The position numbers and the translations under genes were made by a program. A stretch of DNA of 64,000 bases, taken from contig PLJD01000112.1 in the NCBI GenBank assembly GCA_003140175.1, positions 61,322-125,321 on the forward strand. Direction: 5' to 3'. Position 1 is the stretch's first letter; every line of letters starts with the position of its first letter. Shown piece by piece: positions 4,185-62,554 of the stretch. The notes under the pieces are model-generated. The model saw nothing but the letters and a program-made list of their open reading frames with translations. It made no database searches and had not been told where the DNA came from. Source of the stretch: Actinomycetota bacterium. GTDB lineage: Bacteria; Actinomycetota; Acidimicrobiia; IMCC26256; PALSA-555.

Positions 4185-4211
4185 GACTCGCGGTTCTCGA
4201 AACCGCGAGTC
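4185..4211. repeat. GACTCGCG palindrome copy
   Basis: gactcgcggttctcgaaaccgcgagtc. Confidence 0.95.
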
Positions 4212-4331
4212 GGAAGGTCGATGCAGCGGGACCAGTCCGAGGAGCCCGAACCGCTCGCCGCGAATGGTGCGCCCACCTCGAGCAACTCCGCGGTGCCGTG
4301 CGTATGCTACGTGCGCTCTGGGAGGTGGACC

Positions 4332-5159
4332 GTGAAGCAGCCGTTCCGATCGCGCCTCGGCATCGCCACCGCGATTGCCGCGGTGGCGGTCCTTGTCACC
4401 GGCGGGCTTGCCGTCGCGACCAACAATCGCAGCACCCTCTCGGCCATCCCGGGTGTGGACGGCGTGGTCCACGGTTGCGTCAAGAAGGGCGGCGGCGTCC
4501 TGCGGATTATCGATCCGTCGAAGGGCGCGCACTGCCGCACCAACGAACAGGCGCTGACCTTCAACGAGCACGGTCCGCAGGGCGTCCAGGGAGCGCAGGG
4601 CTCGGCCGGGTCGGTGGGGACCGCGGGCAGTGGGCAAGGCATCGAGGGTGAACCGGGCGCCAGCGGGGCGACGGGACAGCCCGGCCCGGCCGGCGTCGCC
4701 GGCGCAACTGGCGCAGCCGGGCCAGCCGGAGCGACTGGAACGACCGGCGCAACGGGACCCCCGGGCCCAGTCCTCGGCGGCTATGTCTCCGCGTACACCG
4801 TCAATCCGCCCGGCCCCTTCTTTGTTCCGTCGGGCGGAAGTGTCCCGTTCAGCTCCACCGGCCCGATCAACGGAATCATCGCGTCGACGTTCCAATTCCA
4901 GATCCAGACCGGTGGTACCTACCGGGTGACGTACTCGATGGCCACCTTCTCGGCCTGCCCCGCGGGCTTCTGCGCGTTCCGGGTGTCCGTCAATGGGATC
5001 TCACTCGCCGGATCGGACGCCATCGCCAGCTCGTCAACGGGGCTGGACCGCGATCTGCTGGCCACGTTCGCGGCGAACGATGTCGTGACCGTTACCAACG
5101 TGGGCCCAGCATCTGCGGCTCTCAGCGAGGACTCGATCGTCATCCAACGGATCGCCTGA
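4332..5159 (+). CDS. Secreted collagen-like (Gly-X-Y) repeat protein
   Basis: GGAGGT then GTG start; signal-type N-terminus, GPQGVQGAQGSAGSVG...GATGPPGP triplets, beta-rich C-terminal domain. Confidence 0.75.
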   Translation: MKQPFRSRLGIATAIAAVAVLVTGGLAVATNNRSTLSAIPGVDGVVHGCVKKGGGVLRIIDPSKGAHCRTNEQALTFNEHGPQGVQGAQGSAGSVGTAGSGQGIEGEPGASGATGQPGPAGVAGATGAAGPAGATGTTGATGPPGPVLGGYVSAYTVNPPGPFFVPSGGSVPFSSTGPINGIIASTFQFQIQTGGTYRVTYSMATFSACPAGFCAFRVSVNGISLAGSDAIASSSTGLDRDLLATFAANDVVTVTNVGPASAALSEDSIVIQRIA

Positions 5160-5257
5160 TCTGACTGCGCAGCAGCGGACCTCCGCCCAGCACAGAGCGG
5201 TGGATCAGACCCCCGCGCAGCGGAGGCCCCCGGACGGCAAGTTCTCCCCGGCGCGCG

Positions 5258-5433
5258 ATGTCGGCCAGCTTGGTCGTCGCCGCAGGGGCGAGGATCGTCA
5301 AGCCAGCCCAGGACGCCCGGCGTTCAACGGTTACCACGGCTACTTCGCTGACCCCGACAACTTCCTGTGGGAGATCGCCTACAACCCCGGCCTCGAGTTC
5401 GCCTCCAATGGCGACGTCACTTTCGGCGTGTGA
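5258..5433 (+). pseudogene. 3' remnant of a VOC/glyoxalase-family gene with a frameshift
   Basis: Frame of ORF 5258: LVVAAGARIVKPAQDA; then frame of ORF 5200: FNGYHGYFADPDNFLWEIAYNPG; together the C-terminal VOC signature split over two frames. Confidence 0.7.
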
Positions 5434-5546
5434 GGCCGTTTTCGGACCTGGAGTCATCGCACACTCCTGACATTTCCGTGACCCGTTTCCCGCCAGCCCG
5501 GATCAGCATCCGAGGTAGGAAGAGAGAACAAGGACAGGGGAGTGCG

Positions 5547-5765
5547 ATGAACGAGACAGATCGGATGCACGAGTTCCACCAGTCGAGGACCTCCAAGCGG
5601 CACATGCGCTGGGTTCTGGTCGGTCTGTCGGCACTGCTGGCGGTCGTCCTGATTGCGAGCGGCGTGGTTCTCATCGGCGCCATCATCGGCGTCATGGCGG
5701 CGGTCCGAGCCTTCATGATCGTGCGGTACCAGCATGACGGTGCCCGGTTCGGCCCCGGCCGCTGA
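5547..5765 (+). CDS. Small membrane protein
   Basis: MNETDRMHEFHQSRTSKRHMRWVLVGLSALLAVVLIASGVVLIGAIIGV...; two hydrophobic segments. Confidence 0.55.
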   Translation: MNETDRMHEFHQSRTSKRHMRWVLVGLSALLAVVLIASGVVLIGAIIGVMAAVRAFMIVRYQHDGARFGPGR

Positions 5766-5801
5766 CCCCGACTCCTACCGGATCCAACTCGGTTGCCTCG
5801 C

Positions 5802-5828
5802 GACTCGCGGCCTGAACGACCGCGAGTC
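5802..5828. repeat. GACTCGCG palindrome copy
   Basis: gactcgcggcctgaacgaccgcgagtc. Confidence 0.95.
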
Positions 5829-6074
5829 GCGCCATCGTCAGAGCTGATGTCACACGTCACCTCTAGCCTGTCAAGGTGCCGTCAGCGGCGGAGATCGCAT
5901 ACCCGGAGTGGGTTCGAGCGCTCGAGGGTGAAGCACAAGACCTAGAGAACATCCGATCCCATGTCAGCCGCGTCCTGTCCGCCGGCGGGTTGGTCGCCGC
6001 ATTCCTTGGACTGGCTCGCGGTCCCATAGCGAGAGAGGCCCGACTGGCTCCCGACGATCTGGCAGTCTGGCCAA

Positions 6075-6560: not shown

Positions 6561-6572
6561 GGCACGTGTGCT

Positions 6573-6601
6573 GACTCGCGAATGTGCGAAACCCGCGAGT
6601 C
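6573..6601. repeat. GACTCGCG palindrome copy (29 nt)
   Basis: gactcgcgaatgtgcgaaacccgcgagtc. Confidence 0.85.
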
Positions 6602-6661
6602 CAGAAGCGGGTCGAGTGTCCTCGGTCCCGCCTACGAGCAGCGCGCCGGGGCCGTGCGTTC

Positions 6662-7147: not shown

Positions 7148-7981
7148 ATGGCCGAGCGGAAGACGCGATCACCCCAGCCGGCCGCCGAGGCTGGCCTCGT
7201 CTTCAGAGAGCCCGGAAAGCGGCGAGATCTCACGTTCGCTGTCCTTCCGACCTCGAGCCTGGAAGTCATCTCGCATCAGCGAAAAGCCAGCGATTCGCAC
7301 GTAAAGCGCCTCGTCAACTCGGTCGAGCGCGTCGGCTTTCTCGCGCCGTTGGTCGTTGTCGAGCGGGAAGACGGCGGAGGCTTCCTCATTATTGACGGCC
7401 AGCATCGATTTCTGGCTGCCCAGGAGCTCGGCCTCCGCCGCCTGCCGGCCGTGATTGCTCCCCGGTCGGTCGCTCGGCGAATGCTGACCCTGAATGTCGA
7501 GAAAGAGCCGAACATCCGCGAGCGCTCGGCGGTCGCCGTTTCGATCTACCGCGAGATGGTGGCGACGGAGCCGAAGATGACCGAGGACGACGCCGAGGTC
7601 GCCGACGCGGTGCAGTACGCCCATTACGTCACGCTCGGGCTGGCCTACGCGCAGTCTGGCCGTCTAGCCGGCAGCGCCTTCGAGCCGATCCTGCGAAAGT
7701 GTGACGGGTTTCTGGATCGGCTGCTCAGCGAGTGCTTGCCGACGCGAGAGGCCCGCGCTGAGAAAGTCGTCGAGGCGCACGGCCTGGTGCGGGCGGTCAC
7801 GGCTCAGCTCAAGGAGTTGGGGGCCTGGCACGAGTTCGTGGGTGCTCAGATCATCTCGTTCGCGAACCCTCTCAAGCGGGCGCGCAAGCAGCATTCCTTC
7901 GACGACACGTTCGACAAGATGATCGCGAAGCTGCACGAGCTCGAACAGGATCCGAAGAAGGCGCTTCGAGCCTCCGGGTGA
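7148..7981 (+). CDS. ParB N-terminal (sulfiredoxin-like) domain protein
   Basis: FLAPLVVVEREDGGGFLIIDGQHRFLAAQELGLRRLPAVI. Confidence 0.8.
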   Translation: MAERKTRSPQPAAEAGLVFREPGKRRDLTFAVLPTSSLEVISHQRKASDSHVKRLVNSVERVGFLAPLVVVEREDGGGFLIIDGQHRFLAAQELGLRRLPAVIAPRSVARRMLTLNVEKEPNIRERSAVAVSIYREMVATEPKMTEDDAEVADAVQYAHYVTLGLAYAQSGRLAGSAFEPILRKCDGFLDRLLSECLPTREARAEKVVEAHGLVRAVTAQLKELGAWHEFVGAQIISFANPLKRARKQHSFDDTFDKMIAKLHELEQDPKKALRASG

Positions 7982-8054: not shown

Positions 8055-9014
8055 TCAGATGGTTGGGTCCGCGGCACCCTCCCGCTCGTCCCGCGCCGCC
8101 CAGTCCAGCAGCGCGTCGAGCGAGTACACCGCGCGATCGATTCCGGCGTGGAGGTCGCCATACCGAGCGATTCGGCTCGGGACCGTCATGATCGTGCAAT
8201 CCCGGGGCTCGACGTCGTCCACCTCGTCCCAGCCGATCGGCGTCGAGACGGTGGCCTCGGGCACCCCCCGCACTGAGTAGGCGCTCGCGATCGTGTGGTC
8301 CCGGGCGTTCTGGTTGTAGTCGACGAAGAGCTTCGCCGGGTCACGGTCCTTCCGCCACCACGTCGTAGTGACGTCCCGAGGCGCTCGGCGCTCCACCTCG
8401 CGCGCGAACGCCAGGGCCGCCCGGCGCACATCGGCAAATCCCCACCGCGGTTCGATCCGGACGTAGATATGGATGCCCGACCCGCCCGACGTCTTCGGCC
8501 AACCAACGGCGTCGAGCTCGTTCAGCACGTCGTGAGCGACGTGCGCGACCCGGCGGACGGTCGCGAAATCGCACTGCGGCATGGGGTCTAAGTCGATCCG
8601 CCACTCGTCCGGGCGCTCGGTATCGCTCCGGCGAGAGTTCCATGGATGGAACTCCACGGTGGACATCTGAACTGCCCAAATGACGTCCGCGAGGTGCGTG
8701 ACGCAGAGCTCATCGGCATGGCGACCCGACGGAAAGTCGACACGAACCGTCTCGACCCAAGGCGGCGCACCGCGAGGCAGCCGCTTCTGATGGACCTTCT
8801 CCCCGCTGACTCCCTCCGGAAAGCGGTGCATCATGCAGGGGCGTTCACGCAGCGCTCGAACGATGCCGTCGCCGACACTGAGGTAGTAGCGGGCAAGGTC
8901 GAGCTTCGTCTCACCCCGAGCGGAGAAGTAGACCCGGTCCGGGTGTGAGAGCCGGACCGTGCGGTCCCCGACCTGCAGCTCAACGGCGGGCGTCTTATTG
9001 CCAGCTCCGGCCAA
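8055..9014 (-). CDS. LigD-type DNA polymerase/primase domain protein (stand-alone)
   Basis: LSHPDRVYF, MMHRFPEGV...HQKR, WAVQMSTVEFHPWNSR, RIDLDPMPQCDF, TSGGSGIHIYVRIEP, FVDYNQNARDHTIASAYSVR. Confidence 0.9.
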   Translation of the reverse strand: MAGAGNKTPAVELQVGDRTVRLSHPDRVYFSARGETKLDLARYYLSVGDGIVRALRERPCMMHRFPEGVSGEKVHQKRLPRGAPPWVETVRVDFPSGRHADELCVTHLADVIWAVQMSTVEFHPWNSRRSDTERPDEWRIDLDPMPQCDFATVRRVAHVAHDVLNELDAVGWPKTSGGSGIHIYVRIEPRWGFADVRRAALAFAREVERRAPRDVTTTWWRKDRDPAKLFVDYNQNARDHTIASAYSVRGVPEATVSTPIGWDEVDDVEPRDCTIMTVPSRIARYGDLHAGIDRAVYSLDALLDWAARDEREGAADPTI

Positions 9015-9183
9015 CGCCGTCTACCTCGCGATCTTCAGCTGCCCAGGGCGACTCGAGGTCGGGCGGACCGCGGGTCTAACGCTCAGCGGTGCGCAGCCTC
9101 GCCCAGCACCACGACAAGTCTGTCTCGCGGTCGCGTGGACCCAGCCCCGAAGACGCACTTTGCAGCTCCCGAGGCCGTTGTCG

Positions 9184-9407: not shown

Positions 9408-9434
9408 GACTCGCGATCTACTAGACCGCGAGTC
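9408..9434. repeat. GACTCGCG palindrome copy
   Basis: gactcgcgatctactagaccgcgagtc. Confidence 0.95.
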
Positions 9435-10570: not shown

Positions 10571-11446
10571 TCAGCCGGTGAAGCTTGGGGTGACGGTGAT
10601 CGCGGCGGGCGCCGGTGGCGGCGGCGGGGGGTTCGGGAACGTGACGAGGGCGAGCCCGGTGAGGCCGGCGCTAGGGAGGAACCCCGACGCTCCGACGAGG
10701 GTCGCGGTGCCGGTGGTCTGGTTCACCCGGTACAGGTGTCCGCCGTCGGTGTTGTCGCCGCCTGCGTAGAGGTTCCCGTCCGGCCCGAACTGGAGGCTGC
10801 CAGCCCCCTCGATGCCGGTGGCCCCGACGAGCGTCGCGGCCCCGGTGCTCAGGTTGATCGTGTAGAGGTGGGCGCCGGGGGCCGAGTGGGTGGTGCCTTC
10901 GATGGCGTACATCGTCGTGCCGTTCCATGCCAGCCCGGTGATCGGACCGACCCCCGTGAGTCCGATGACGACCGACGCGCCGGTCACGGGGTTCAGCGTG
11001 CTGAGGGTCGACGGGCCCGCGAGGACTTGGGAGGCGCCGTACAGGGTGGATCCCACATAGGCGAGACCGTTGAACGGGGCGGCGCCGTCCGGGACAGGGG
11101 CGCCGATCGCGGCGCCGGTGCTGAGGTTGAACTGGCTGATCGCGTCCGGACGGGCCGAGCCCGAGGCCTGGGCGTAGCAGATCGCGGTCGCAGCCGAGGT
11201 GGGGTTCGGCTGACAGACGATCTCGGTCACCCCGACGCTGGGTGAGAACGGCAGCGTCCCGACTGGCGTGGCGCTGCCCGTCCCGACGTTGACGGTCGAG
11301 AGCGTGGACGTCGTTGGGTTGGGGGGCGGCGTGTTGTAGCTGCCGTAGAGGGTGCCGGCCGCGCCCGCCGCCTGCGCCGCGGCGACGAACACCAGAGAGG
11401 CCGCGAGGCCCGCCAGCGACACCCGCCGAATCAATGGCCCCCTCAC
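10571..11446 (-). CDS. Secreted beta-propeller-like repeat protein
   Basis: Signal peptide MRGPLIRRVSLAGLAASLVFVAAAQAAGA (GTG start 11446); repeated LYxIN..TGAATLVG blades. Confidence 0.65.
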   Translation of the reverse strand: MRGPLIRRVSLAGLAASLVFVAAAQAAGAAGTLYGSYNTPPPNPTTSTLSTVNVGTGSATPVGTLPFSPSVGVTEIVCQPNPTSAATAICYAQASGSARPDAISQFNLSTGAAIGAPVPDGAAPFNGLAYVGSTLYGASQVLAGPSTLSTLNPVTGASVVIGLTGVGPITGLAWNGTTMYAIEGTTHSAPGAHLYTINLSTGAATLVGATGIEGAGSLQFGPDGNLYAGGDNTDGGHLYRVNQTTGTATLVGASGFLPSAGLTGLALVTFPNPPPPPPAPAAITVTPSFTG

Positions 11447-11546
11447 GGGCCGAAACCTATCAGTCGTTCTGAGACCGACTCGGTCGTCACCGCGCCGCCG
11501 TCCTCGACGGCAGGGCGCAGGTTCCCGGAGCGAGATCGGGGAGGCT

Positions 11547-11573
11547 GACTCGCGATCTCCTGGACCGCGAGTC
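11547..11573. repeat. GACTCGCG palindrome copy (divergent intergenic)
   Basis: gactcgcgatctcctggaccgcgagtc. Confidence 0.95.
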
Positions 11574-11650
11574 AGCCCACTCGTCCCGCGGGCTGGGCTG
11601 GTCACCCTTGAGCGAGGCGCTTCATTGACTGAATGCGCGAAACTTCGGGA

Positions 11651-12283
11651 ATGGACGGCGTGCATGATCTCGGTGGTCTCGCCGGGTTTGGTCCTGTCGA
11701 GATCGAAGCGGACGAGCCGATCTTCCACGAGGATTGGGAGCGGCGGGTCTTTCGGATCAACACGGCCGCGATGACCGCCGGCCTCATCGGGGGCGGGAGG
11801 TTTCGGCACAGCATCGAGCGCATGGCGCCCGACCATTACCTCTCATCGTCGTACTACGAGCACTGGCTCACCGGGCTGGCGACCCTCCTGGTCGAGCGAG
11901 GGGTGGCAAGTCGTGACGACCTCGAGGCGCGGGCCGGCGGAAGGTTTCCGCTCTCCGGACCGGATCGGGGCAGCGCTCCCGGAGTGAGCGGTGGCGACCC
12001 CACTGAACCCCGGTTCGCGGTAGGACACCAGGTTCGGGTCCGGGAATGGCACGCGCCAGGGCATACCCGGGCGCCGCGGTACGTGCAGGGAAAGCGCGGC
12101 GTGGTCACCCGACACGATGGAGCATTCTCGGTGCCAGACATCGAGGCTCACAGCGACGCGAAGCACCTGGAGCCCACGTACTCGGTGCAGTTCGCCTCGC
12201 GTGAGCTTTGGGGAGAGGGAGGCTCGCCTGGCGAGACCGTGCAGGTAGACCTGTGGGAGAGCTACCTCGAGGATTCTCAATGA
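11651..12283 (+). CDS. nthB: Nitrile hydratase subunit beta
   Basis: [35 protein letters not shown]-terminal beta-barrel domain; stop overlaps alpha start. Confidence 0.92.
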
Positions 12284-14855: not shown

Positions 14856-14882
14856 GACTCGCGGTCTACGAGATCGCAAGTC
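14856..14882. repeat. GACTCGCG palindrome copy
   Basis: gactcgcggtctacgagatcgcaagtc. Confidence 0.95.
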
Positions 14883-15335: not shown

Positions 15336-15362
15336 GCCACGCGGTTTCGGGGACCGCGAGTC
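15336..15362. repeat. GACTCGCG palindrome copy, degenerate left arm
   Basis: gccacgcggtttcggggaccgcgagtc. Confidence 0.8.
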
Positions 15363-16554: not shown

Positions 16555-16579
16555 GCCTCGCGGTTTCGGACCGCGAGTC
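16555..16579. repeat. GACTCGCG palindrome copy, variant left arm
   Basis: gcctcgcggtttcggaccgcgagtc. Confidence 0.8.
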
Positions 16580-17878: not shown

Positions 17879-17905
17879 GACTCGCGATCTAGGGGATCGC
17901 GAGTC
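17879..17905. repeat. GACTCGCG palindrome copy (divergent intergenic)
   Basis: gactcgcgatctaggggatcgcgagtc. Confidence 0.95.
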
Positions 17906-21825: not shown

Positions 21826-21852
21826 GACTCGCGGTTCGGCGGTACCGCGACT
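21826..21852. repeat. GACTCGCG palindrome copy, right arm ends GACTC
   Basis: gactcgcggttcggcggtaccgcgactc. Confidence 0.85.
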
Positions 21853-21961
21853 CGCAAGCGAGTTGATGGCCGCGACTCGGCAGCATGAGCTGCCCCCTTG
21901 CTGACCTGACGGATCCGATCCGGCGCTTCGAAACACGGCGACGGCGGGTCTCTCGGATGCC

Positions 21962-21989
21962 GACTCGCGCTTCTAGCAGACCGCGAGTC
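21962..21989. repeat. GACTCGCG palindrome copy, doublet member
   Basis: gactcgcgcttctagcagaccgcgagtc. Confidence 0.9.
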
Positions 21990-22003: not shown

Positions 22004-22030
22004 GACTCGCGATCTACGGGATCGTGAGTC
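22004..22030. repeat. GACTCGCG palindrome copy, doublet member
   Basis: gactcgcgatctacgggatcgtgagtc. Confidence 0.95.
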
Positions 22031-27869: not shown

Positions 27870-27896
27870 GACTCGCGGTCTACAGAACCGCGAGTC
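27870..27896. repeat. GACTCGCG palindrome copy (divergent intergenic)
   Basis: gactcgcggtctacagaaccgcgagtc. Confidence 0.95.
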
Positions 27897-27929: not shown

Positions 27930-27956
27930 GACCGGCGATCTGGGAGACCGCGAGTC
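27930..27956. repeat. GACTCGCG palindrome copy, degenerate left arm
   Basis: gaccggcgatctgggagaccgcgagtc. Confidence 0.8.
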
Positions 27957-28690: not shown

Positions 28691-28717
28691 GACTCGCGGT
28701 CTGATGGACCGCGAGTC
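28691..28717. repeat. GACTCGCG palindrome copy
   Basis: gactcgcggtctgatggaccgcgagtc. Confidence 0.95.
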
Positions 28718-29546: not shown

Positions 29547-29573
29547 CGCTCGCGGTTCGGTGGATCGCGAGTC
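29547..29573. repeat. GACTCGCG palindrome copy, variant left end
   Basis: gcgctcgcggttcggtggatcgcgagtc (approx.). Confidence 0.85.
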
Positions 29574-31189: not shown

Positions 31190-31216
31190 GACTCGCGGTT
31201 TCGGGGACCGCGAGTC
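31190..31216. repeat. GACTCGCG palindrome copy (divergent intergenic)
   Basis: gactcgcggtttcggggaccgcgagtc. Confidence 0.95.
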
Positions 31217-31380: not shown

Positions 31381-31407
31381 GACTCGCGGTTCGACAGATC
31401 GCGAGTC
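31381..31407. repeat. GACTCGCG palindrome copy, doublet (divergent intergenic)
   Basis: gactcgcggttcgacagatcgcgagtc. Confidence 0.95.
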
Positions 31408-31422: not shown

Positions 31423-31449
31423 GACTCGCGGTCTTGCTGATCGCGAGTC
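31423..31449. repeat. GACTCGCG palindrome copy, doublet (divergent intergenic)
   Basis: gactcgcggtcttgctgatcgcgagtc. Confidence 0.95.
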
Positions 31450-32967: not shown

Positions 32968-32994
32968 GACTCGCGATGAGCATGATCGCGAGTC
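32968..32994. repeat. GACTCGCG palindrome copy, doublet
   Basis: gactcgcgatgagcatgatcgcgagtc. Confidence 0.95.
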
Positions 32995-33003: not shown

Positions 33004-33030
33004 GATTCGCGGTTCAGCACATCGCGAGTC
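33004..33030. repeat. GACTCGCG palindrome copy, doublet
   Basis: gattcgcggttcagcacatcgcgagtc. Confidence 0.92.
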
Positions 33031-35820: not shown

Positions 35821-35847
35821 GACTCGCGGTCTACGGGATCGCGAGTC
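35821..35847. repeat. GACTCGCG palindrome copy
   Basis: gactcgcggtctacgggatcgcgagtc. Confidence 0.95.
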
Positions 35848-36827: not shown

Positions 36828-36854
36828 GACTCGCGATCTATGGAACCGCGAGTC
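36828..36854. repeat. GACTCGCG palindrome copy (divergent intergenic)
   Basis: gactcgcgatctatggaaccgcgagtc. Confidence 0.95.
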
Positions 36855-37572: not shown

Positions 37573-37599
37573 GACTCGCGATCGTGGGAACCGCGAGTC
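37573..37599. repeat. GACTCGCG palindrome copy
   Basis: gactcgcgatcgtgggaaccgcgagtc. Confidence 0.95.
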
Positions 37600-39593: not shown

Positions 39594-39620
39594 GACTCGC
39601 GATCAAGATGACCGCGAGTC
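39594..39620. repeat. GACTCGCG palindrome copy (between kwaB-like and AbiTii genes)
   Basis: gactcgcgatcaagatgaccgcgagtc. Confidence 0.95.
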
Positions 39621-39667: not shown

Positions 39668-40605
39668 CTATACGCCGGGTAGACCAAAGTGCGCAGCTAA
39701 TGCCTTTGCGGCCATGGTTCCGAGCGCACCCGCCCCGGCGGTTCCAGCAACAGCCGTTGCCCTAAGCATGAGTCGTCCGAGCCACGCGGTTGCTCGTGGC
39801 CCCATTGCCACGCCCAGCTTCGACTCTTCCGTAGTGCGATCTCCATCGAGGGCGCTCTGCAGATCGCTCAAGTCCTGATCGTCGATACCCAGTTCCCGCA
39901 GAAACTGGAGAAGCCCCGGCTGATCCCCGGCCGACGGGAAGACGATTGACTGCTCAGGATGTGAACTCGCGACTGCAACATTTGCAGTCCCGCCGAAGAT
40001 GTTGGTGATGATCGGTTGAAGCTGTTCCCTCATCGGCGTAGGAGCATCGAGCTGTCCGGCCTCCGGTAGTACATCTTCGAGCGATAGCGCGAGGTTCAGG
40101 ATTCTCGTTCGCACGGTGTCAACAACTCCTCCGAGTTGCCTTGGGGACAAGACGCGCCACGCTTGTTGGAGGCCCATCCCCTGATACAGCCGGACCGTTC
40201 CCCGCTGGATCATTGTGTTAGTCAAGGCGACTGCGTCGGCAGGCCATGCGGCCTCGAGCTGGTCCTCACGTGACAGCCGCTCGAGTTCTGCGATCGGCTC
40301 GCGGTACTCAACATTGAAAAGATAGCCACGTCGCATTTCGTCAGGGAAGCCAACCGACGGGATCGGAGCATTTCGATATGCGCTCCCAAACGAGCCGCCA
40401 AAGTGACCAAGTACCTCTGTCTGGAACGGACCCGGTACTCGGGAAGTTCTGCGTCGGGCGGATATCCGGCTAGCTCGTGATCGACCCAGGACTCCAACTC
40501 GCCTACCTTCAATCGACTCGCAATCACTTTCACTTTTCGAAGCAAGGTAGAAACGGGAACTGCGTCACCGCTGGCTGCATCGACGAGTTCCGTCAGAGGA
40601 GTCAT
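39668..40605 (-). pseudogene. AbiTii-family abortive infection gene, interrupted by one frameshift at ~40401-40430
   Basis: N-part MTPLTELVDAASGDAVPVSTLLRKVKVIASRLKVGELESWVDHELAGYPPDAELPEYRV (ORF 40222-40695); C-part GHFGGSFGSAYRNAPIPSVGFPDEMRRGYLFNVEYREPIAELERL...LSPRQLGGVVDTVRTRIL (ORF 39668-40336). Confidence 0.75.
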
Positions 40606-40804: not shown

Positions 40805-40831
40805 GACTCGCGATCCGTCCGACCGCGAGTC
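40805..40831. repeat. GACTCGCG palindrome copy
   Basis: gactcgcgatccgtccgaccgcgagtc. Confidence 0.95.
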
Positions 40832-40887: not shown

Positions 40888-40914
40888 GACTCGCGGTTCG
40901 TGGGATCGCGAGTC
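40888..40914. repeat. GACTCGCG palindrome copy, preceded by an extra GACTC
   Basis: gactcgcggttcgtgggatcgcgagtc. Confidence 0.95.
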
Positions 40915-41556: not shown

Positions 41557-42009
41557 GTGAGCAGCGACGCCACAGCCCGACGTCGGCATTTGGTGGCCCG
41601 GCCTCCATGCAGCGTCTGTGGCGCCCCCGCGACCTCGGTTGAGCTGGTACCTCCCGGTGAAGTTCCGTCGGACTGGCAGAAATGGTCCGTTGAGCTTCGG
41701 CGGGTGTACGAGCAGTTTCACGATCCGATGGAATGGCGATTCCTCTACAGCGGAATCGCAGCCGGAAACCCACTCGGCGGAGACATCTCTGCCGACCGCG
41801 CCACGCGCTATGCCACCGCCTTCTCAGAGCCGCTCGAATATAACAACGTGCGTACGGCGGGTCTCTATGACGAAGCCGGCTTTTGCGCAGAGTGCAGGCT
41901 TCCGTACTGCTCTAGTCACTGGAGCGTCGATCGGGGCGGCTACGGGACCTGCCCGCGAGGCCACGGCAAGAGCCTCGATCCGCACTGGAGTCCGGAGAAC
42001 TACGACTAG
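41557..42009 (+). CDS. Hypothetical protein with cysteine pairs
   Basis: CSVCGAPATSVELVPPGE...FCAECRLPYCSSHW...CPRGHG; stop codon lies in a palindromic repeat copy. Confidence 0.65.
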   Translation: MSSDATARRRHLVARPPCSVCGAPATSVELVPPGEVPSDWQKWSVELRRVYEQFHDPMEWRFLYSGIAAGNPLGGDISADRATRYATAFSEPLEYNNVRTAGLYDEAGFCAECRLPYCSSHWSVDRGGYGTCPRGHGKSLDPHWSPENYD

Positions 42010-42027
42010 CGATATGGATCGCGAGTC
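42004..42027. repeat. GACTCGCG palindrome copy, degenerate; overlaps CDS stop codon
   Basis: gactagcgatatggatcgcgagtc. Confidence 0.75.
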
Positions 42028-42041: not shown

Positions 42042-42068
42042 GACTCGCGGTTGGCCAAACCGCGAGTC
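42042..42068. repeat. GACTCGCG palindrome copy, doublet
   Basis: gactcgcggttggccaaaccgcgagtc. Confidence 0.95.
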
Positions 42069-42214
42069 CCGAAACAAATCGATGCTTGCTCCGAGTCGCT
42101 GGGAGCTACGGTGGGTTGGACTCATCCAGAAGCCACGAGAGACCCGGCTCGTTGACGGGCTGGCAACCGGCCATACGGCACGGTGCCTCTGCCGGGAGCG
42201 ATGAGGAGGCTGCC

Positions 42215-42886: not shown

Positions 42887-43846
42887 ATGGAACCACGCCG
42901 CTTGATCGTTGAGGACGCCATCGCGGAGATGCTCCCAGAGGCAAATCCGACAAAGGCGGCCCTGTCTGACGCCATCAGTCACGCGGCCTGCCTGCTTGAG
43001 GATGACGAGTCCATCCTGCGCCTCTATCAGTGGCCCACCCTCCCACGACGGGAGCGTGGCGCTGGCTTGGTGCTTGTCACGGACCGCGCCTTGATGTCCG
43101 TCGATTCTCGCCCACCAGATGCAGCTCGCTGCCACCGAATTCCGGTCAGCGAGCTTCGCGCAATCACAGTTATCCCGGTCGGTGGTCGGCATCTGACTGG
43201 GGTTGCTGCGCTTGGCGAGCACGACACGGTCGAGTTCTTCATCGGATATCGATACAACGCCGAGAGTTTTGTCGAGGAGCTACGCGGCTGCGCACCGGAT
43301 GCGGTTGGTGCTGATCCCGCTGCGGTGGTTGCTCACTGGTGGGACGATCCACGAATCGCTTGGCCACGCCCCCTTTCGCTTGGCGCCAGATGGGAGTACG
43401 TCAGCGGTTTGGCGGAATTCCCAGGAGGACAGAGCGGCCTGAGAATGGACCTGTCAAGTACTGGAATCGCGGCGACGAGGCTCGGCGCCGGTGGCGTATT
43501 CCGCATCGCCCTGCCCTGGGAGCGCGTACAGGCCCTCCGCGTCGAGGGCGCGCGACAGATGGAACGCCGACCGACGCTCACTCGGATGCTTCCCGTTGGC
43601 TTGATCGGTGCAAAGCGGAGAAAGAACCTGACCCTGGGGTTGGTTGTCGCCGAGCTGAATGATGGGGACGAGGTGATCTTTGCGAGTCCCCGCCACACGG
43701 AGTCTGAGCTGCGTAGCGCATTGTCCAGCATCCTTGCCGCTGCAGGCTCGAGCACGCTCGCGCTACAGCCACCTGGTGCCCGGCGGCTTACTCCCCGAGG
43801 CGACGCCTTCCGCTTGATCGGATCGCCTACGACTCGCGGTTCCTGA
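42887..43846 (+). CDS. Hypothetical PH-like domain protein
   Basis: MEPRRLIVEDAIAEMLPEANPTK...; last codons (TTRGS*) are encoded by repeat copy 43831-43857. Confidence 0.6.
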   Translation: MEPRRLIVEDAIAEMLPEANPTKAALSDAISHAACLLEDDESILRLYQWPTLPRRERGAGLVLVTDRALMSVDSRPPDAARCHRIPVSELRAITVIPVGGRHLTGVAALGEHDTVEFFIGYRYNAESFVEELRGCAPDAVGADPAAVVAHWWDDPRIAWPRPLSLGARWEYVSGLAEFPGGQSGLRMDLSSTGIAATRLGAGGVFRIALPWERVQALRVEGARQMERRPTLTRMLPVGLIGAKRRKNLTLGLVVAELNDGDEVIFASPRHTESELRSALSSILAAAGSSTLALQPPGARRLTPRGDAFRLIGSPTTRGS

Positions 43847-43857
43847 GATCGCGAGTC
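43831..43857. repeat. GACTCGCG palindrome copy, triplet; contains CDS stop codon
   Basis: gactcgcggttcctgagatcgcgagtc. Confidence 0.95.
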
Positions 43858-43880
43858 ACGTACCTGGCCGAAGGCTCTGA

Positions 43881-43908
43881 GACTCACGACTCACGACTCA
43901 CGACTCAC
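43881..43908. repeat. Tandem heptamer (GACTCAC)x4 abutting a palindrome copy
   Basis: gactcacgactcacgactcacgactcac. Confidence 0.95.
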
Positions 43909-43935
43909 GACTCGCGGTTCGACGGATCGCGAGTC
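43909..43935. repeat. GACTCGCG palindrome copy, triplet
   Basis: gactcgcggttcgacggatcgcgagtc. Confidence 0.95.
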
Positions 43936-43950: not shown

Positions 43951-43977
43951 GACTCGCGGTTGAGCAGGCCTCGAGTC
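43951..43977. repeat. GACTCGCG palindrome copy, triplet
   Basis: gactcgcggttgagcaggcctcgagtc. Confidence 0.9.
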
Positions 43978-45825: not shown

Positions 45826-45852
45826 GACTCGCGGATGGTCTGACCGCGAGTC
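45826..45852. repeat. GACTCGCG palindrome copy
   Basis: gactcgcggatggtctgaccgcgagtc. Confidence 0.95.
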
Positions 45853-46053: not shown

Positions 46054-49000
46054 TCAGTTCGTATCCGTGGTTTGGCTGTACTCGACGAACGCGCAGAGTG
46101 TCGAGATCAGGCGGATCTCGGGGATATCGCGGGCGCGGCTGTTGAGCAGTTCTTCGGTGCAGACCAGATAGGCGAGACACCGGGCCCTGCTAATCGCAAC
46201 GTTGAGTCGGTTTCGGGAGAACAGGAAGTCCGCGGACCGGGTCATATCAATTCCAGCCGATGTCGCCATCGTGAAGAGTACGATTGCGGCTTGTCGTCCC
46301 TGGAACTTGTCGACAGTTCCGACTGGGATAGCGCGGGTGCGTTCGTCTCGATCGAGCCGAGCTCGGATGAGGTTGACCTGGTCGTTGTAGGGTGCCACCA
46401 CCATGAAGTCGTCGACGGTGAGTGGCCGCTCCTCGCCGCGTTGGTTGGTCCACATGGTGGCGATCATTCGGTCGATCTGGGCTGCGACGATGTCGGCTTC
46501 TTCTGGTGACTCGGTGGTTCTGTCCGCGTGGTGTGCCTGGAGCCAGCGCAGGCCGGTTCCGAACTCGGTGGTCTGCTGTTCGCAGCTCGCGTGGCTGAAG
46601 AGCCTCCCCTCGTAGATTTCCTTGGAAATGAAGGAGCAGACATCGGGGTGCATCCGTCGCGTCTGGGTCAGGAACACTCCTCGATCGGCCGGCATCGTTA
46701 CATCGTGACCGAGCACGTGCTCGAGGACGCTGCGACCGCCCCCACCGGGATGTGTGGCCTGGGCGACTTGGGGCAGCTGGAGCGGGTCGCCGAGCAGGAC
46801 GAGGTTGTCGGCGGCGCGGGAGGCGGCGAGCGCGTCGGCTAGGGCCAATTGGCCGGCTTCGTCGATAAGCAGGACATCGACCGGTGCGTTCTTCATGTCT
46901 TGGCTGGCGAACAACCAGGTCGTCCCGGCCACCAGGTTGAACTCGTCCCGAGCGCACTGGCTGTTGCCGCCCGCGTACTTCACACCGGGAAGGCCACCCG
47001 AAGCAGGTTCCTTCGCGCGCCGTACCGCGCGTAGACGGTCGAGGCCTCCTTCGGTGGTGAAGACGTCGATGACTTCGTTGAGGAGGTTGTCGATGGCGTG
47101 GTGGCTCATGGCGGTGATGCCTACCCGCATGTCGGCCAGGATCAGCGTCCGGACGAGGTGCGCGGCCCGGAAGGTCTTTCCCGTTCCGGGTGGTCCTTGG
47201 ATGGCCAGGAAGCTGTGGTCGAGTTGGGTTGCCCATGCCGTCATCTCGTCGAGGTCGTCGCTGAACTTCCCTCCGGGCGGGCCACCACCGGGGGTGAATG
47301 CCGGCAGGTCCCGTCTTAGTAGTGCCATCGAGACCCGGTGGGGTGGGGGTGCTGTCGGGTCGAGGATCCGAGATGCCATCTCCGAGAGCGCTTCGGGTTT
47401 AGGTCGCGGCGAGACCCAGTCGTTGAGCACGACGACCCCGGGGAAGGTGTCCAGCTCCTCGCACTTCTCGGACCACACCAGGTCGAGCTCGCCGGCGTTG
47501 CGGTCGAGACGGTCGAGACGGTCGATGGAGGCGTACCCGACTCTGCCCTCCGATGTCGTGTATACGACCCGATCGCCGCGGGTCCCGAAGGCGTCAGTTG
47601 CCTGGTTGGGGAACGCGAAGCGCATCCCGGGTTGGAGGATGTTGCCGTTCTTCCCCACGCGCTCGACCAATCCCACGGCGGTGAGACCAGCCAGAGCTTT
47701 GGAATCATCAAGGAGCGTCGTCGGATCGGCCTGGCACAGGGCGAGCGTGGGGGCCAGATGGGCCAGCCACTCGCGCCGCCAATAACCGAGGACGTCACCC
47801 AACAGATACTCGGGCGTATCGACGCCGAACGCGTGGAGCTCGGCCACGTGGGCGTCGAGGTCGGGGGCGTCTTCATCAGGCTCGAGTACGGCCGCCCGCC
47901 ACTCGGTGCTTTCGGGCCGATGAGCCACCAACCAGTCGCGCAGGGCATGTGTGGCGCGGACGTCGTCTTCGTTGTATGACGCGATGTGATCCAGCGCGAC
48001 CGGGTCGCGCTCGGCCATGTAGTGCTCGTACTCGACGACCGCGTCGGCGCCCCGCGCGAGGTCATGGCCTCGTTCGAACGTCGTCAATTGCTCCAGGTAC
48101 TTCAAGCCGTAGGACTCGGTTCCGACCTGCATCGCGTTGCGGGCAACGACGAGCAGGTCGACGAACAGCCCCGTCTCCACCAACGCGTGCAGCGTGACTT
48201 CGCCGACGCCGTGGTCCGTGGCCAGTCGCTCGAGCGCCGATCGCTCGGTGTGGTTGTAGTGGTACACGTGCATGCCCGGGTGCGTCGAGCGTCGCTCGGC
48301 GAGGAAGTCGATGAGCGACGCCGCGGCGGCCGCTTCCTCCTCGAGATTGTGAGCCCACCAGGCGCGGTAGCGCCAGGCGCCATCGGCGTCCCGCAGGATC
48401 AGCCCGAACAGGAAGAACAGCCCAGTGTCGGCCCGCCAGAAGGGGTGACCCTCAAAGTCGAGGAACACGTCGCCGCCATCGGGCTTGGGCATCAGTCCGA
48501 AGCCGCGGCCCCATACTGGGTCCTCGGTCGGCTCGATCATCCGGTGCGGCGGGGGCTCCTCGGCGCGGAGCCGGGCAACGGCCTGCAGGGTCGCCTGATC
48601 GACCAGGCGGGCCAACCGTTCGACGCGGATCCCGCCGATCGCCCGGTCGCACGCAGCCAAGGCACCCAAGGTCGACACGCCCTCGGCTTCGAGTAACGCA
48701 CGTTCGGTGCGGCGGATACCGGCGACGTAGATGAGTGAGTCCTCGGTCCTCCACTGCTCGGTGCAGAGGTCGAAGAACTCGCAGAACGCGCAGTGGTCGC
48801 ATGGTTCCGGGACAGTCGCCTGATTGGCCGGGCTATCTGTGAGCACCTTGGCGAGTTGCCTCCGGATCCGATTCCAGTAGGGGCGGAACTCGCCGACTGT
48901 CAGCGTCTCGACCCGCCCCGATCCCAGCCAGAGGTGCATGCGGCGGGGCCGTGCGCCGGTGAGCGCCTCGATCGCATCCGCATAGAAACAGAGTTGGAGC

Positions 49001-49431
49001 ACATGGCCCGGCTTGGCCTCAACCCGGGCGAGCTTCGCGTCGACCGGTTCATAGGCCTCGCCGGTGTCCGCGTCTTCCATCCGCACCAAGAAGTCAGCGA
49101 TCCCCCGTACACCTTCATGGACGAACGGCATCTGGTAGATGACATCCCACCCCTGACCGAAAGGATCGCCGACGCGATCGACCCAGTCCGTGAACGCCTC
49201 GCCCGACCTCCGGGCCGGGACCTCCAAGATGGTCTTGCCCTGCCGCGTGTACTCGGCCAGGCAGTCGGCCTCATGCTGAAGCCCCCTCTTGGTCAGGAGC
49301 TGCGCGAATGAGCCAAACGATCCGCCCGGAGTCGCGAGCAGGCCGTCCTCCACCTGGTGTTTCAACGTGAGGAAATGGGCGCAGTCCAGCCACGCCGTGA
49401 TCTTCGAGGGGGTGAGTAGGCGATCCGTCAT
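46054..49431 (-). CDS. RecB-like nuclease (TM0106-type) fused to UvrD/Dna2-like AAA helicase
   Basis: MTDRLLTPSKITAWLDCAHFLTLK, CDHCAFCEFFDLC, IQGPPGTGKT, LLIDEAGQLALADALA, VGTVDKFQGRQAAIVLFTM...NRLNVAISRAR. Confidence 0.9.
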   Translation of the reverse strand: MTDRLLTPSKITAWLDCAHFLTLKHQVEDGLLATPGGSFGSFAQLLTKRGLQHEADCLAEYTRQGKTILEVPARRSGEAFTDWVDRVGDPFGQGWDVIYQMPFVHEGVRGIADFLVRMEDADTGEAYEPVDAKLARVEAKPGHVLQLCFYADAIEALTGARPRRMHLWLGSGRVETLTVGEFRPYWNRIRRQLAKVLTDSPANQATVPEPCDHCAFCEFFDLCTEQWRTEDSLIYVAGIRRTERALLEAEGVSTLGALAACDRAIGGIRVERLARLVDQATLQAVARLRAEEPPPHRMIEPTEDPVWGRGFGLMPKPDGGDVFLDFEGHPFWRADTGLFFLFGLILRDADGAWRYRAWWAHNLEEEAAAAASLIDFLAERRSTHPGMHVYHYNHTERSALERLATDHGVGEVTLHALVETGLFVDLLVVARNAMQVGTESYGLKYLEQLTTFERGHDLARGADAVVEYEHYMAERDPVALDHIASYNEDDVRATHALRDWLVAHRPESTEWRAAVLEPDEDAPDLDAHVAELHAFGVDTPEYLLGDVLGYWRREWLAHLAPTLALCQADPTTLLDDSKALAGLTAVGLVERVGKNGNILQPGMRFAFPNQATDAFGTRGDRVVYTTSEGRVGYASIDRLDRLDRNAGELDLVWSEKCEELDTFPGVVVLNDWVSPRPKPEALSEMASRILDPTAPPPHRVSMALLRRDLPAFTPGGGPPGGKFSDDLDEMTAWATQLDHSFLAIQGPPGTGKTFRAAHLVRTLILADMRVGITAMSHHAIDNLLNEVIDVFTTEGGLDRLRAVRRAKEPASGGLPGVKYAGGNSQCARDEFNLVAGTTWLFASQDMKNAPVDVLLIDEAGQLALADALAASRAADNLVLLGDPLQLPQVAQATHPGGGGRSVLEHVLGHDVTMPADRGVFLTQTRRMHPDVCSFISKEIYEGRLFSHASCEQQTTEFGTGLRWLQAHHADRTTESPEEADIVAAQIDRMIATMWTNQRGEERPLTVDDFMVVAPYNDQVNLIRARLDRDERTRAIPVGTVDKFQGRQAAIVLFTMATSAGIDMTRSADFLFSRNRLNVAISRARCLAYLVCTEELLNSRARDIPEIRLISTLCAFVEYSQTTDTN

Positions 49432-49874
49432 AGGACCGGCGTCAGCCGAGGCGCTGCGGGGAACTCCATCTGGACGGGATCGTAAGCGAACCCGGGGGAC
49501 CCTCGAGCGTCTCGGTGTGACAGCCTCGGGAAGCCACGGGCCGGCCGCCGAGGGCTCCTCTTGGCGGAACTCGAAATCGACAACGAAGTGGCCCACTACT
49601 TCGGGGGTCGGAACCCCGGCAGCCGGCACGTCTCCTTCGACTAGCTCCAACTACCTCGAGGAGTACCGCGAGAGGAACGCGTCCCGGCGTCGGCTGATCC
49701 GAGCAACATGCGGGCGTCGTGTCTCCAACTCGGCTCTTACCTTGCGAGCTGGGAGATGCTGGGGGGCTGGTCCGAACTACTCCAGCGGAGCGTGAGGTCA
49801 TCCGTGCCGGTGGTCGAGGCGATCGCCGCAGCGGCGGACGAGATGTCGACACGAGATCCAACCATCAGATCGAC

Positions 49875-49901
49875 GACTCGCGGTCACCACAACCGCGACT
49901 C
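49875..49901. repeat. GACTCGCG palindrome copy, fused (divergent intergenic)
   Basis: gactcgcggtcaccacaaccgcgactc; shares GACTC with the next copy. Confidence 0.9.
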
Positions 49902-49923
49902 GCGATCCAGGAACCCGCGAGTC
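49897..49923. repeat. GACTCGCG palindrome copy, fused (divergent intergenic)
   Basis: gactcgcgatccaggaacccgcgagtc. Confidence 0.92.
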
Positions 49924-50637: not shown

Positions 50638-50664
50638 GCCTCGCGGTGAGCATGACCGCGAGTC
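50638..50664. repeat. GACTCGCG palindrome copy, variant left arm
   Basis: gcctcgcggtgagcatgaccgcgagtc. Confidence 0.85.
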
Positions 50665-53006: not shown

Positions 53007-53033
53007 GACTCGTGGTCACCGCAATCTCGGGTC
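53007..53033. repeat. Degenerate GACTCGCG palindrome copy
   Basis: gactcgtggtcaccgcaatctcgggtc. Confidence 0.6.
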
Positions 53034-53058: not shown

Positions 53059-53085
53059 GACTCGCGATCTATGGATCCGCGAGTC
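53059..53085. repeat. GACTCGCG palindrome copy
   Basis: gactcgcgatctatggatccgcgagtc. Confidence 0.95.
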
Positions 53086-54537: not shown

Positions 54538-54564
54538 GAGTCGCGGTCGTGGGAACCGCGAGTC
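54538..54564. repeat. GACTCGCG palindrome copy (divergent intergenic)
   Basis: gagtcgcggtcgtgggaaccgcgagtc. Confidence 0.9.
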
Positions 54565-56851: not shown

Positions 56852-56878
56852 GACTCGCGGTTCCGGGAACCGCGAGTC
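56852..56878. repeat. GACTCGCG palindrome copy
   Basis: gactcgcggttccgggaaccgcgagtc. Confidence 0.95.
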
Positions 56879-59900: not shown

Positions 59901-59964
59901 TCCCGAGACCGCAAGGCGCCGTCGACAGATCTTGCCTATCTCCTCGGCGATACTCCCATCAACG

Positions 59965-59991
59965 GACTCGCGGTCCTCGAGACCGCGAGTC
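59965..59991. repeat. GACTCGCG palindrome copy
   Basis: gactcgcggtcctcgagaccgcgagtc. Confidence 0.95.
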
Positions 59992-60154
59992 GAGCCGATC
60001 GCGGCGTGGGTCGGAGCGCCAGCCCGCGGGAGCCAGAAACGACCCGCGCACGCTCGGAGAAGTCTTAGCCTGATTCGCGCCTCTCGAGCCCATTCCCTTT
60101 CCAAGCGGTCGCAGCAGAATCGAAAATCTGGCCCACTCGATACTGTGACCATCG

Positions 60155-61357: not shown

Positions 61358-61490
61358 TTCGGAACTAACTCCGGTGGACCGAGCGCACGGCATCCCCACG
61401 CAACTCAACGAGCGCGGTGCCGGCCACGGTTGCTCAACACGCGCTGGGTAGGCTGACGCTCGCGTGTCGATTGCGCATCCGCCGACCGAC

Positions 61491-61550
61491 GGCTTCGCGG
61501 TCCGGATTGACAACGCCCTCACCATCGCGCACCAGATCGAGGCCGGGAAG
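61491..61550 (+). pseudogene. Fragment of an HtrA-like protease gene
   Basis: [20 protein letters not shown] vs [20 protein letters not shown] at ~14383-14442; 24-nt exact match ctcaccatcgcgcaccagatcgag. Confidence 0.6.
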
Positions 61551-61677
61551 GTCCGACGACACGATCCCGGTCGCTGAGTCTTCAGCGAACGCGGGGGCGA
61601 CGCGACCCAAAGCGGCGCAGAAGCGCCCGTTCGGCACCGGAAGGCTGTCCGTCGCAGTTGGATTCCCTCCAACACTC

Positions 61678-61704
61678 GGCTCGCGGTTCAGCAGACCGCG
61701 AGGC
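61678..61704. repeat. GACTCGCG palindrome copy, degenerate outer arms
   Basis: ggctcgcggttcagcagaccgcgaggc. Confidence 0.75.
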
Positions 61705-61844
61705 GCGCGTCCATAGAGATGGGCGGAGGACGCGGAGTTGGGACTGCCCGCGGGTCACAGCGCAACGCCCGGGGTCTCCAGACCGTGGACGGCAGACAGG
61801 TCGGGCCGGTTGAGCCCTGAGCGACTATGTGCTACAAATAGCAC

Positions 61845-62120
61845 ATGACTCGTGTGGGCGTACGTGAGCTTCGGCAACGAGCGAGCGAGCTGCTCCGTCG
61901 CGTCGAGAATGGAGAGAGCTTCGAAGTTACTGACCGGGGACGACCAGTAGCGGTGCTGGCTCCGCTGCCTGACCAGAGCCCCCTTGATCGCTTGCGCACC
62001 GCGGGTGACTTGGTGCCCGCTCAAGAGGACCTCACCGACCTTCCAGATCCCTTGCCCCTCGCCTCCGGCCAGGAGCCGCCGTCAAACGTGCTGGCCCGGC
62101 TCCGCCGCGATGAGCGCTAG
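61845..62120 (+). CDS. Phd/YefM-type (VapB-like) antitoxin
   Basis: MTRVGVRELRQRASELLRRVENGESFEVTDRGRPVAVLAPL. Confidence 0.92.
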   Translation: MTRVGVRELRQRASELLRRVENGESFEVTDRGRPVAVLAPLPDQSPLDRLRTAGDLVPAQEDLTDLPDPLPLASGQEPPSNVLARLRRDER

Positions 62121-62511
62121 GCGAGCGACGTACCTCGATTCGTCGGCGATCGTGAAACTTGCAGTGGCGGAACGAGAGTCGACGGCCCTGCGTAGGTACC
62201 TCAGCCGCCGCCGCCCGCTCGTGTCCAGCGCACTCAGCCGGACAGAAGTGGTGAGGGCGCTGCTGCCACTGGGCACCGAGGCGGTCAGGCGCGCGCAGGA
62301 GGTGCTGAGTCGGATCGACCTGGCACGGGTGAACGACCGAGTCCTCTTGGCTGCTGGCACTCTGTCACCGATCGAGATGCGCTCTCTTGACGCCATCCAT
62401 CTGGCCACCGCCCTGGACCTCGGCAGCGATCTCGCACGGGTCGTGACCTACGACGAGCGTATGGCTGGCGCGGCTGAGTCTCTCGGCCTCACAGTGACCT
62501 CGCCAGGCTGA
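62110..62511 (+). CDS. vapC: PIN-domain toxin (VapC family)
   Basis: ATYLDSSAIVKLAVAERES...SSALSRTEVVRAL...SLDAIHLATALDLG; overlaps antitoxin stop. Confidence 0.92.
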   Translation: MSARRATYLDSSAIVKLAVAERESTALRRYLSRRRPLVSSALSRTEVVRALLPLGTEAVRRAQEVLSRIDLARVNDRVLLAAGTLSPIEMRSLDAIHLATALDLGSDLARVVTYDERMAGAAESLGLTVTSPG

Positions 62512-62528
62512 CAGCTCATCGTGGGCGC

Positions 62529-62554
62529 GACTCGCGATCCCGGAACCGCGAGTC
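62529..62554. repeat. GACTCGCG palindrome copy (26 nt)
   Basis: gactcgcgatcccggaaccgcgagtc. Confidence 0.95.

What the first reader, a model, noticed from the sequence alone, without database searches (positions are those of the whole stretch)
4185..62554. Massively dispersed ~27-nt intergenic palindrome family (GACTCGCGRT-N7-AYCGCGAGTC), ~45 copies in 64 kb
Seen directly: about 45 copies with near-constant arms and fixed 27-nt length, only two or so differing by 1-2 nt. The ~9-nt centre differs in almost every copy. They sit between genes, and only touch coding sequence at extreme 3' ends. Density approaches one per non-operonic gap. Constant arms with variable loops imply selection on, or recent spread of, the arms. 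I do not recognise this as a named repeat family. Candidate roles (inference): REP/MITE-like element mobilised in trans, binding site for a nucleoid or segregation protein, DNA-uptake-type signal, or a structural RNA/DNA hairpin.
Basis: seen in the sequence. Interest (0 to 1): 0.93.

Follow-up and report, generated by a model that had tools for sequence, protein, structure and literature searches.

The report
Palindromes that bound swapping gene modules
A 29-base palindrome sits between genes about a hundred times in one accessory region of a soil-type actinobacterial genome, and comparison with a related contig shows that the pieces of DNA between neighbouring palindromes have changed places, as if the palindromes were the joints of a modular gene array.

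Summary
The window has 38 sites of the 27-nt form with at most 2 arm mismatches, one with 3, and about six length variants, roughly 45 in all, against 0-2 in simulations. The full element is 29 bp, YGACTCGCGRTYYN5RRAYCGCGAGTCR, with nothing conserved outside it. Genome-wide there are 108 copies, but 97 lie on two contigs (C25 with the window, and the last 88 kb of C68). That region is AT-richer and heterogeneous in GC3. The first 120 kb of C68 has no half-site at all. Only a same-genus genome (8 copies) and one stray palsa_740 contig (7 exact copies) share the element.

New finding: modules between palindromes have been rearranged. Two palsa_740 modules (96.5% and 84% identical to C68) are in swapped order, their homology stopping at the palindrome edge. 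A third is inverted. In eight pairs of palindromes sharing one flank, none was found to share the other.

The palindromes therefore look like recombination joints of a gene-module array, working like integron cassettes or dif modules but belonging to neither. No recombinase is identified, and the comparison rests mainly on one contig. REP/RAYT membership is not supported; an RNA hairpin is disfavoured.

The parts
4185..4211 (.). palindromic site, perfect arms
5802..5828 (.). palindromic site, perfect arms
6573..6601 (.). site, length variant (13-nt centre), perfect arms
9050..9076 (.). palindromic site, 2 arm mismatches
9408..9434 (.). palindromic site, perfect arms
11547..11573 (.). palindromic site, perfect arms (inside called gene 10571-11836)
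14856..14882 (.). palindromic site, 1 mismatch; its left flank is shared with C68:154368 (80% over 210 bp)
15336..15362 (.). palindromic site, 2 mismatches
16555..16579 (.). site, length variant (9-nt centre)
17879..17905 (.). palindromic site, perfect arms
21826..21853 (.). site, length variant (12-nt centre)
21962..21989 (.). site, length variant (12-nt centre), perfect arms
22004..22030 (.). palindromic site, 1 mismatch
27870..27896 (.). palindromic site, perfect arms
27930..27956 (.). palindromic site, 2 mismatches; its right flank is shared with C68:163450 (96% over 46 bp) from the first base after the site, left flank is not
28691..28717 (.). palindromic site, perfect arms; same centre as palsa_740 site L063:1818
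29547..29573 (.). palindromic site, 2 mismatches; centre class ATCCACCGAAC, also found in G001 and L063
30484..30510 (.). palindromic site, perfect arms; overlaps a degenerate copy at about 30463
31190..31216 (.). palindromic site, perfect arms
31381..31407 (.). palindromic site, perfect arms
31423..31449 (.). palindromic site, perfect arms
32968..32994 (.). palindromic site, perfect arms
33004..33030 (.). palindromic site, 1 mismatch
35821..35847 (.). palindromic site, perfect arms
36828..36854 (.). palindromic site, perfect arms
37573..37599 (.). palindromic site, perfect arms; centre class ATCGTGGGAAC (5 copies)
39594..39620 (.). palindromic site, perfect arms
40805..40831 (.). palindromic site, perfect arms
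40888..40914 (.). palindromic site, perfect arms
42004..42027 (.). site, length variant (8-nt centre), 1 mismatch
42042..42068 (.). palindromic site, perfect arms
43831..43857 (.). palindromic site, perfect arms
43909..43935 (.). palindromic site, perfect arms
43951..43977 (.). palindromic site, 1 mismatch
45826..45852 (.). palindromic site, perfect arms
49875..49901 (.). palindromic site, 1 mismatch, overlaps the next by 5 nt
49897..49923 (.). palindromic site, perfect arms
50638..50664 (.). palindromic site, 1 mismatch
53007..53033 (.). palindromic site, 3 mismatches (degenerate)
53059..53085 (.). palindromic site, perfect arms
54538..54564 (.). palindromic site, 1 mismatch
56852..56878 (.). 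palindromic site, perfect arms
59965..59991 (.). palindromic site, perfect arms
61678..61704 (.). palindromic site, 2 mismatches
62529..62554 (.). site, length variant (10-nt centre), perfect arms

Best explanation
The 29-bp palindromes are the joints of a large modular accessory-gene array of at least about 190 kb. A symmetric DNA-binding dimer, most likely a tyrosine-type site-specific recombinase, binds the two 11-bp half-sites (YGACTCGCGRT / AYCGCGAGTCR) around a centre of about 7 bp. Strand exchange at two such sites excises, inserts, inverts or re-orders the gene or two between them. Shown here: the sites, their confinement to one atypical region, and module boundaries that fall at the sites with order and orientation differing between genomes. 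Inferred: that one dedicated enzyme does this, that it is a tyrosine recombinase (29 = 11+7+11, an odd-length dyad), and that it tolerates differing centres. The enzyme is not identified; the only recombinase gene found inside the array is C68:211561-212499, next to three tandem sites.
For: Module boundaries: a palsa_740 contig (L063) matches C68 in blocks whose homology starts or ends within 1-2 bp of a palindrome edge: module A L063:5772-6666 = C68:159554-160448 (96.5%), and module B right end L063:5799 = C68:161139. Order is B-A in L063 and A-B in C68, which are circular permutations of each other. Module C is inverted and its right end falls at the L063:7302 site. Neighbouring modules have different identities (97, 84, 80-87%), as expected if they moved independently. 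Inside the own genome three more pairs share one flank from the site edge: C25:89251/C68:163450 (96% over 46 bp), C58:14275/16510 (80% over 101 bp), C68:190682/191990 (81% over 53 bp). In none of the eight palindrome pairs examined was the opposite flank reported as homologous. Spacing is about one gene or two per site. Half-sites are symmetric and vary independently, and the centre is 11 nt in about 39 of 45 window copies, as for a dimer with a phasing constraint. The region has lower and more variable GC3 (0.774 sd 0.068, against 0.880 sd 0.035 for the first 120 kb of C68), with defence and varied metabolic genes. A tyrosine recombinase lies within it.
Against: The between-genome comparison rests on one 8.7-kb contig of unknown source, probably misbinned since it is the only one of its 6.9-Mb MAG with sites. 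Two of the six module ends there (L063:5276 and 6802) do not reach a palindrome. The crossover point is unresolved: at A's left end neither half of the site is conserved (near half 10/14, P=0.72), at its right end the whole site is (27/29); a lox-like crossover in the centre predicts that the near half travels. The array recombinase has no close relative in G001, which also has sites (28% best). Centres differ among most sites, whereas Cre/Xer-type enzymes need matching overlaps. No empty site or circular form was seen.
Confidence: 0.5

Rival explanations
1. A REP-like miniature element that copies itself as a bare 29-bp palindrome into intergenic DNA, mobilised in trans by an enzyme not yet known. 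The module boundaries would be secondary, from chance or homology-driven rearrangement between copies.
For: Size, intergenic placement, nearness to gene 3' ends (24 sites within 60 bp of a 3' end, 5 of a 5' end), clusters of overlapping copies, and identical centres in unrelated contexts and in three genomes (29 identical pairs against 1.75 expected).
Against: No Y1/RAYT transposase, no GTAG/CGTC tag, no conserved dimer linker, confinement to one region, and synteny that breaks at the sites instead of running across them.
Confidence: 0.22
2. Binding sites for a nucleoid, segregation or silencing protein that marks one chromosomal domain or island, like MatP-matS or phage stoperators. Recombination at the sites would be incidental.
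For: Perfect dyad with independently varying half-sites, regional confinement in an AT-richer domain, and conservation of the site above its flank in C68:190682/191990 (28/29 against 81%). A ParB_N-domain protein is encoded at window 7148-7981.
Against: Does not explain module boundaries exactly at the sites. GC skew is near zero throughout and shows no ori or ter. Density (one per 1-2 kb) far exceeds matS.
Confidence: 0.15
3. Bidirectional transcription terminators or mRNA 3'-end hairpins.
For: 10-bp stem with a short loop; highest density in convergent gaps (26 sites in 7.5 kb) compared with divergent gaps (15 in 10.4 kb).
Against: No T-run on either side. Position 9/19 pairs do not covary (G-C 44, A-C 35, G-T 22, A-T 6). 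The sense-strand preference for G-U over A-C at 9/19 (14:5) is not repeated at 11/17 (9:12). 15 sites lie between divergent genes. The rest of the genome does without them.
Confidence: 0.08
4. Rearrangement by homologous, microhomology or Ku/LigD end-joining at repeated GC-rich palindromes, without any dedicated enzyme.
For: Some sites are identical over 29 bp; a LigD-type primase-polymerase gene is in the window (8055-9014).
Against: Most recombined sites differ in the centre, leaving only about 10 bp of identity per arm. It does not explain why the arms are kept intact.
Confidence: 0.05

Closest known systems
Acinetobacter pdif / dif modules (XerCD-dependent)
   Same: Short sites of 28-29 bp with two 11-bp arms flank genes that occur in different contexts (PMC6449649).
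   Different: dif sites are 28 bp with unlike XerC and XerD arms and a 6-bp centre (PMC6449649). Here the arms are identical and GC-rich, the dyad is odd in length, and there are about 100 sites in one chromosomal array.
Integrons and chromosomal superintegrons (IntI, attC)
   Same: Large array of mostly one-gene modules, each bounded by an imperfect palindrome with conserved ends and variable centre; modules reorder.
   Different: No integron integrase (best TIGR02249 score 102.7 against cut-off 265); the 29-bp arms lack the RYYYAAC/GTTRRRY boxes; modules lie in either orientation. Actinobacteria were reported to lack complete integrons (PMC9024848).
REP/REPIN elements with RAYT (GTAG and CGTC superfamilies)
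   Same: 20-40-bp extragenic palindromes, many copies, near gene 3' ends.
   Different: No Y1 transposase and no GTAG/CGTC tag; regional instead of genome-wide; synteny breaks at the elements (PMC3733652 for the family features).
matS/MatP (Ter macrodomain)
   Same: Palindromic protein-site repeated only within one chromosomal domain.
   Different: matS is 13 bp, 23 copies in 800 kb (PMC3330122); here 29 bp, about 97 copies in about 200 kb.

Membership tests
REP/REPIN (RAYT-mobilised) | RAYT/TnpA-Y1 transposase in the genome | tested here: not met
   PF01797: no match in G000 (94.5% complete); found in 5 of 14 control genomes
REP/REPIN (RAYT-mobilised) | GTAG or CGTC tag at one end of the palindrome | tested here: not met
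   Flanks beyond the Y/R base are unconserved; feature from PMC3733652
REP/REPIN (RAYT-mobilised) | high-copy extragenic palindrome of 20-40 bp | tested here: met
Integron | integron integrase (IntI) | tested here: not met
   11 tyrosine recombinases of the genome scanned, all below the TIGR02249 cut-off; shorter fragments were not scanned and the genome is a draft
Integron | attC sites with R boxes RYYYAAC / GTTRRRY | tested here: not met
   29-bp consensus lacks them and nothing is conserved outside; an attC covariance model was not run
Integron | mobile one-gene modules bounded by the sites | tested here: inconclusive
   three modules compared with one outside contig; two clearly palindrome-bounded
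dif / pdif modules | 28-bp sites, unlike XerC and XerD arms, 6-bp centre | tested here: not met
   identical arms, odd-length dyad; feature from PMC6449649
dif / pdif modules | recombination by host XerC/XerD | not testable with these tools
   four Xer-like recombinases are encoded (C80, C97, C55, C3), none linked to the array
matS/MatP-type domain marker | sites confined to one chromosomal domain | tested here: met
   97 of 108 copies on two contigs; that the two contigs adjoin is not shown
matS/MatP-type domain marker | domain is the replication terminus | tested here: inconclusive
   GC skew flat; draft assembly
Intrinsic terminator | stem followed by T-run | tested here: not met
   no T enrichment in flanks
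Structural RNA | compensatory pairs in the stem | tested here: not met
   9/19 counts G-C 44, A-C 35, G-T 22, A-T 6: no covariation

The most novel reading that the evidence does not exclude
A previously undescribed gene-module recombination system of Actinobacteria, functionally parallel to the integron but with symmetric 29-bp double-stranded sites and an unidentified recombinase, maintaining a shuffling array of about 100 accessory modules in one chromosomal region.
Probability: 0.4. Interest if true: 0.86.

Novelty: new variant of a known kind. Interest (0 to 1): 0.64.

Why it matters
Integrons are nearly absent from Actinobacteria (PMC9024848 reports no complete integron there), although their accessory genomes are large. 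A palindrome-jointed module array would show a separate route to storing and reshuffling single genes, and would provide a compact symmetric recombination site of possible use as a tool. It also gives a simple, cheap test: sequence a few relatives and see whether gene order changes exactly at the palindromes.

Tried and rejected
(1) Order-wide family: the core CGCGRTYN5RAYCGCG looked enriched across the order (up to 60 per genome against 0-3 for the reversed pattern), but the loci lack the arms and are scattered GATC/CGCG-rich sequence; rejected, and the reversed-pattern control is inadequate here. (2) Single hits in Microbacterium, erpe_2018 bin.37 and an IMG/VR contig: the latter two lie inside ORFs and about one chance match is expected in a scan of this size by my estimate; treated as chance. 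The UBA5176 hit is intergenic and undecided. (3) Composite dimer (REPIN or BIME): linkers between close sites share no sequence. (4) Sense-strand hairpin: bias at 9/19 not repeated at 11/17. (5) G001/G000 comparison around G1C23:53374: the flank beyond the gene is too diverged to decide insertion against junction. (6) Serine recombinase: one only, on C5, away from the array. (7) tRNA-Ala call next to L063:5773: not reproduced on homologous C68, taken as spurious. (8) Literature: no described match found.
Full report
WHAT IS THERE. The window is the right half of contig C25 (61322-125321 of 125321) of a 4.25-Mb, 128-contig draft genome, G000. It holds 39 palindromes of the 27-nt form with at most 3 mismatches in the 16 arm bases, 26 of them perfect, plus about six with near-perfect arms and a centre of 8-13 nt instead of 11. 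Shuffles and Markov simulations give 0-2. Aligned, 108 copies from G000 contigs and G001 give YGACTCGCGRTYYN5RRAYCGCGAGTCR, 29 bp; outside it every column has background composition. The copies avoid genes: 7 of 39 in a window that is 76% coding. Over the whole array they lie on average nearer to gene 3' ends (median 110 bp) than 5' ends (185 bp) and are densest in convergent gaps.

WHERE IT IS. Of 108 genome copies with up to 2 mismatches, 49 are on C25 and 48 on C68; C58 has 3 and C43 one. On C68 they start at 128.8 kb and run to the contig end at 216.5 kb; the first 120 kb contains not one half-site. Their region is AT-richer and compositionally mixed: GC3 0.774 (sd 0.068) against 0.880 (sd 0.035) for the first 120 kb of C68, the drop starting at about 122 kb on the same contig. 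So this is not a genome-wide repeat but a mark of one accessory region of roughly 200 kb, if C25 and C68 adjoin (not shown). Genes there include aminotransferase, nitrile hydratase, luciferase-like and aldo-keto enzymes, wax-ester synthases, a type II restriction set (TdeIII-like, C5 methylase), an Mrr nuclease, KwaB-like and AbiTii proteins and a tyrosine recombinase.

WHO HAS IT. A second genome of the genus (G001) has 8 copies; a family member (G003) has two copies of a symmetric variant, GACGCGCGRT-N7-AYCGCGCGTC. A scan of one genome for each of about 85,000 species finds one dense relative, an 8.7-kb contig (PMLV01000001.1, MAG palsa_740, labelled Acidimicrobiaceae) with 7 exact copies, the only site-bearing contig of that MAG.

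THE KEY EVIDENCE. Comparing that contig (L063) with C68 shows palindrome-bounded modules. Module A: L063:5772-6666 against C68:159554-160448, 96.5% identical; identity begins 1-2 bp after the left palindrome and ends at the outer edge of the right one, with unrelated DNA on either side. Module B: 84% identical and ending at the palindrome at L063:5799 / C68:161139. In L063 the order is B then A; in C68 it is A then B. Module C (80-87%) is inverted, and its homology ends at the L063:7302 palindrome. Within G000 three more pairs of sites share one flank starting at or within a few bases of the site. For the eight palindrome pairs with one shared flank listed, no homology of the opposite flank was reported. 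A repeat that merely inserts into gaps should leave both flanks homologous. Assembly chimerism is unlikely, because each site has its own centre and only about 10 identical bases per arm.

HOW IT MIGHT WORK. The half-sites vary independently: at 9/19 the counts are G-C 44, A-C 35, G-T 22 and A-T 6, so an RNA or hairpin stem is not being preserved, while a protein dimer reading YGACTCGCGRT on each side fits. The centre length is held at 11 nt between the 8-bp arms in most copies. 29 = 11+7+11 with an odd dyad resembles tyrosine-recombinase core sites (general knowledge). The centres are not random: 29 pairs of sites share an identical centre against 1.75 expected, with one class in G000, G001 and L063. 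The array holds one tyrosine recombinase, C68:211561-212499, with three tandem sites upstream; it is not an integron integrase. The genome also has four Xer-like recombinases elsewhere.

WEAK POINTS. One outside contig carries most of the argument. Two of its six module ends do not reach a palindrome. The crossover point is unclear: at A's left end the near half-site is not conserved, at its right end the whole site is. The array recombinase has no close relative in G001, which may mean that G001 holds relics, or that the enzyme is another one. No empty site or circle was found. Gene calls come from a simple codon-score caller of my own, so context counts are approximate.

COMPARISON. It works most like integron cassettes or dif modules, but tested defining features of both are not met: no IntI, no attC boxes; arms identical and length odd, unlike dif (PMC6449649). 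It is not a RAYT-type REP: no Y1 transposase, no GTAG/CGTC tag (PMC3733652). A published survey reports no complete integron in Actinobacteria (PMC9024848).

VERDICT. Real, unusual and localised. Best reading: recombination joints of a modular accessory array (0.5). Main rival: a REP-like element with an unknown mobiliser (0.22).

Noticed in passing
42119-42207 (+): SAM riboswitch (RF00162, 47.5 bits) just upstream of a short gene at 42215 and 51 bp after a palindrome.
   Followed up: no
38367-39383 (+) and 39668-40336 (-): KwaB-like and AbiTii-domain proteins, possible phage-defence genes in neighbouring modules.
   Followed up: no
46054-49596 (-): 1180-aa fusion of a TM0106-type RecB-like nuclease and an IGHMBP2-type helicase.
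   Followed up: no
4332-5159 (+): Collagen-repeat protein with a BclA C-terminal domain.
   Followed up: no
43858-43908: Tandem GACTCAC units run directly into the left arm of the palindrome at 43909, as if the arm had slipped or been copied.
   Followed up: no
C25:40000-125321 and C68:128000-216524: 14 solitary half-sites (GACTCGCGRT) against about 2 expected; none in C68 0-120 kb. They may be decayed or recombined remnants.
   Followed up: partly
G003 C91:2970-2996 and C289:2536-2562: Symmetric arm variant GACGCGCGRT-N7-AYCGCGCGTC in another genus of the family, suggesting co-evolving site specificity.
   Followed up: partly
C68:212943-213037: Three sites in tandem 33-35 bp apart upstream of the array's tyrosine recombinase; two have near-identical centres (GTATGAG-), so recently duplicated.
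   Followed up: no
7148-7981 (+) and 8055-9014 (-): ParB_N-domain protein and LigD-type primase-polymerase side by side.
   Followed up: no
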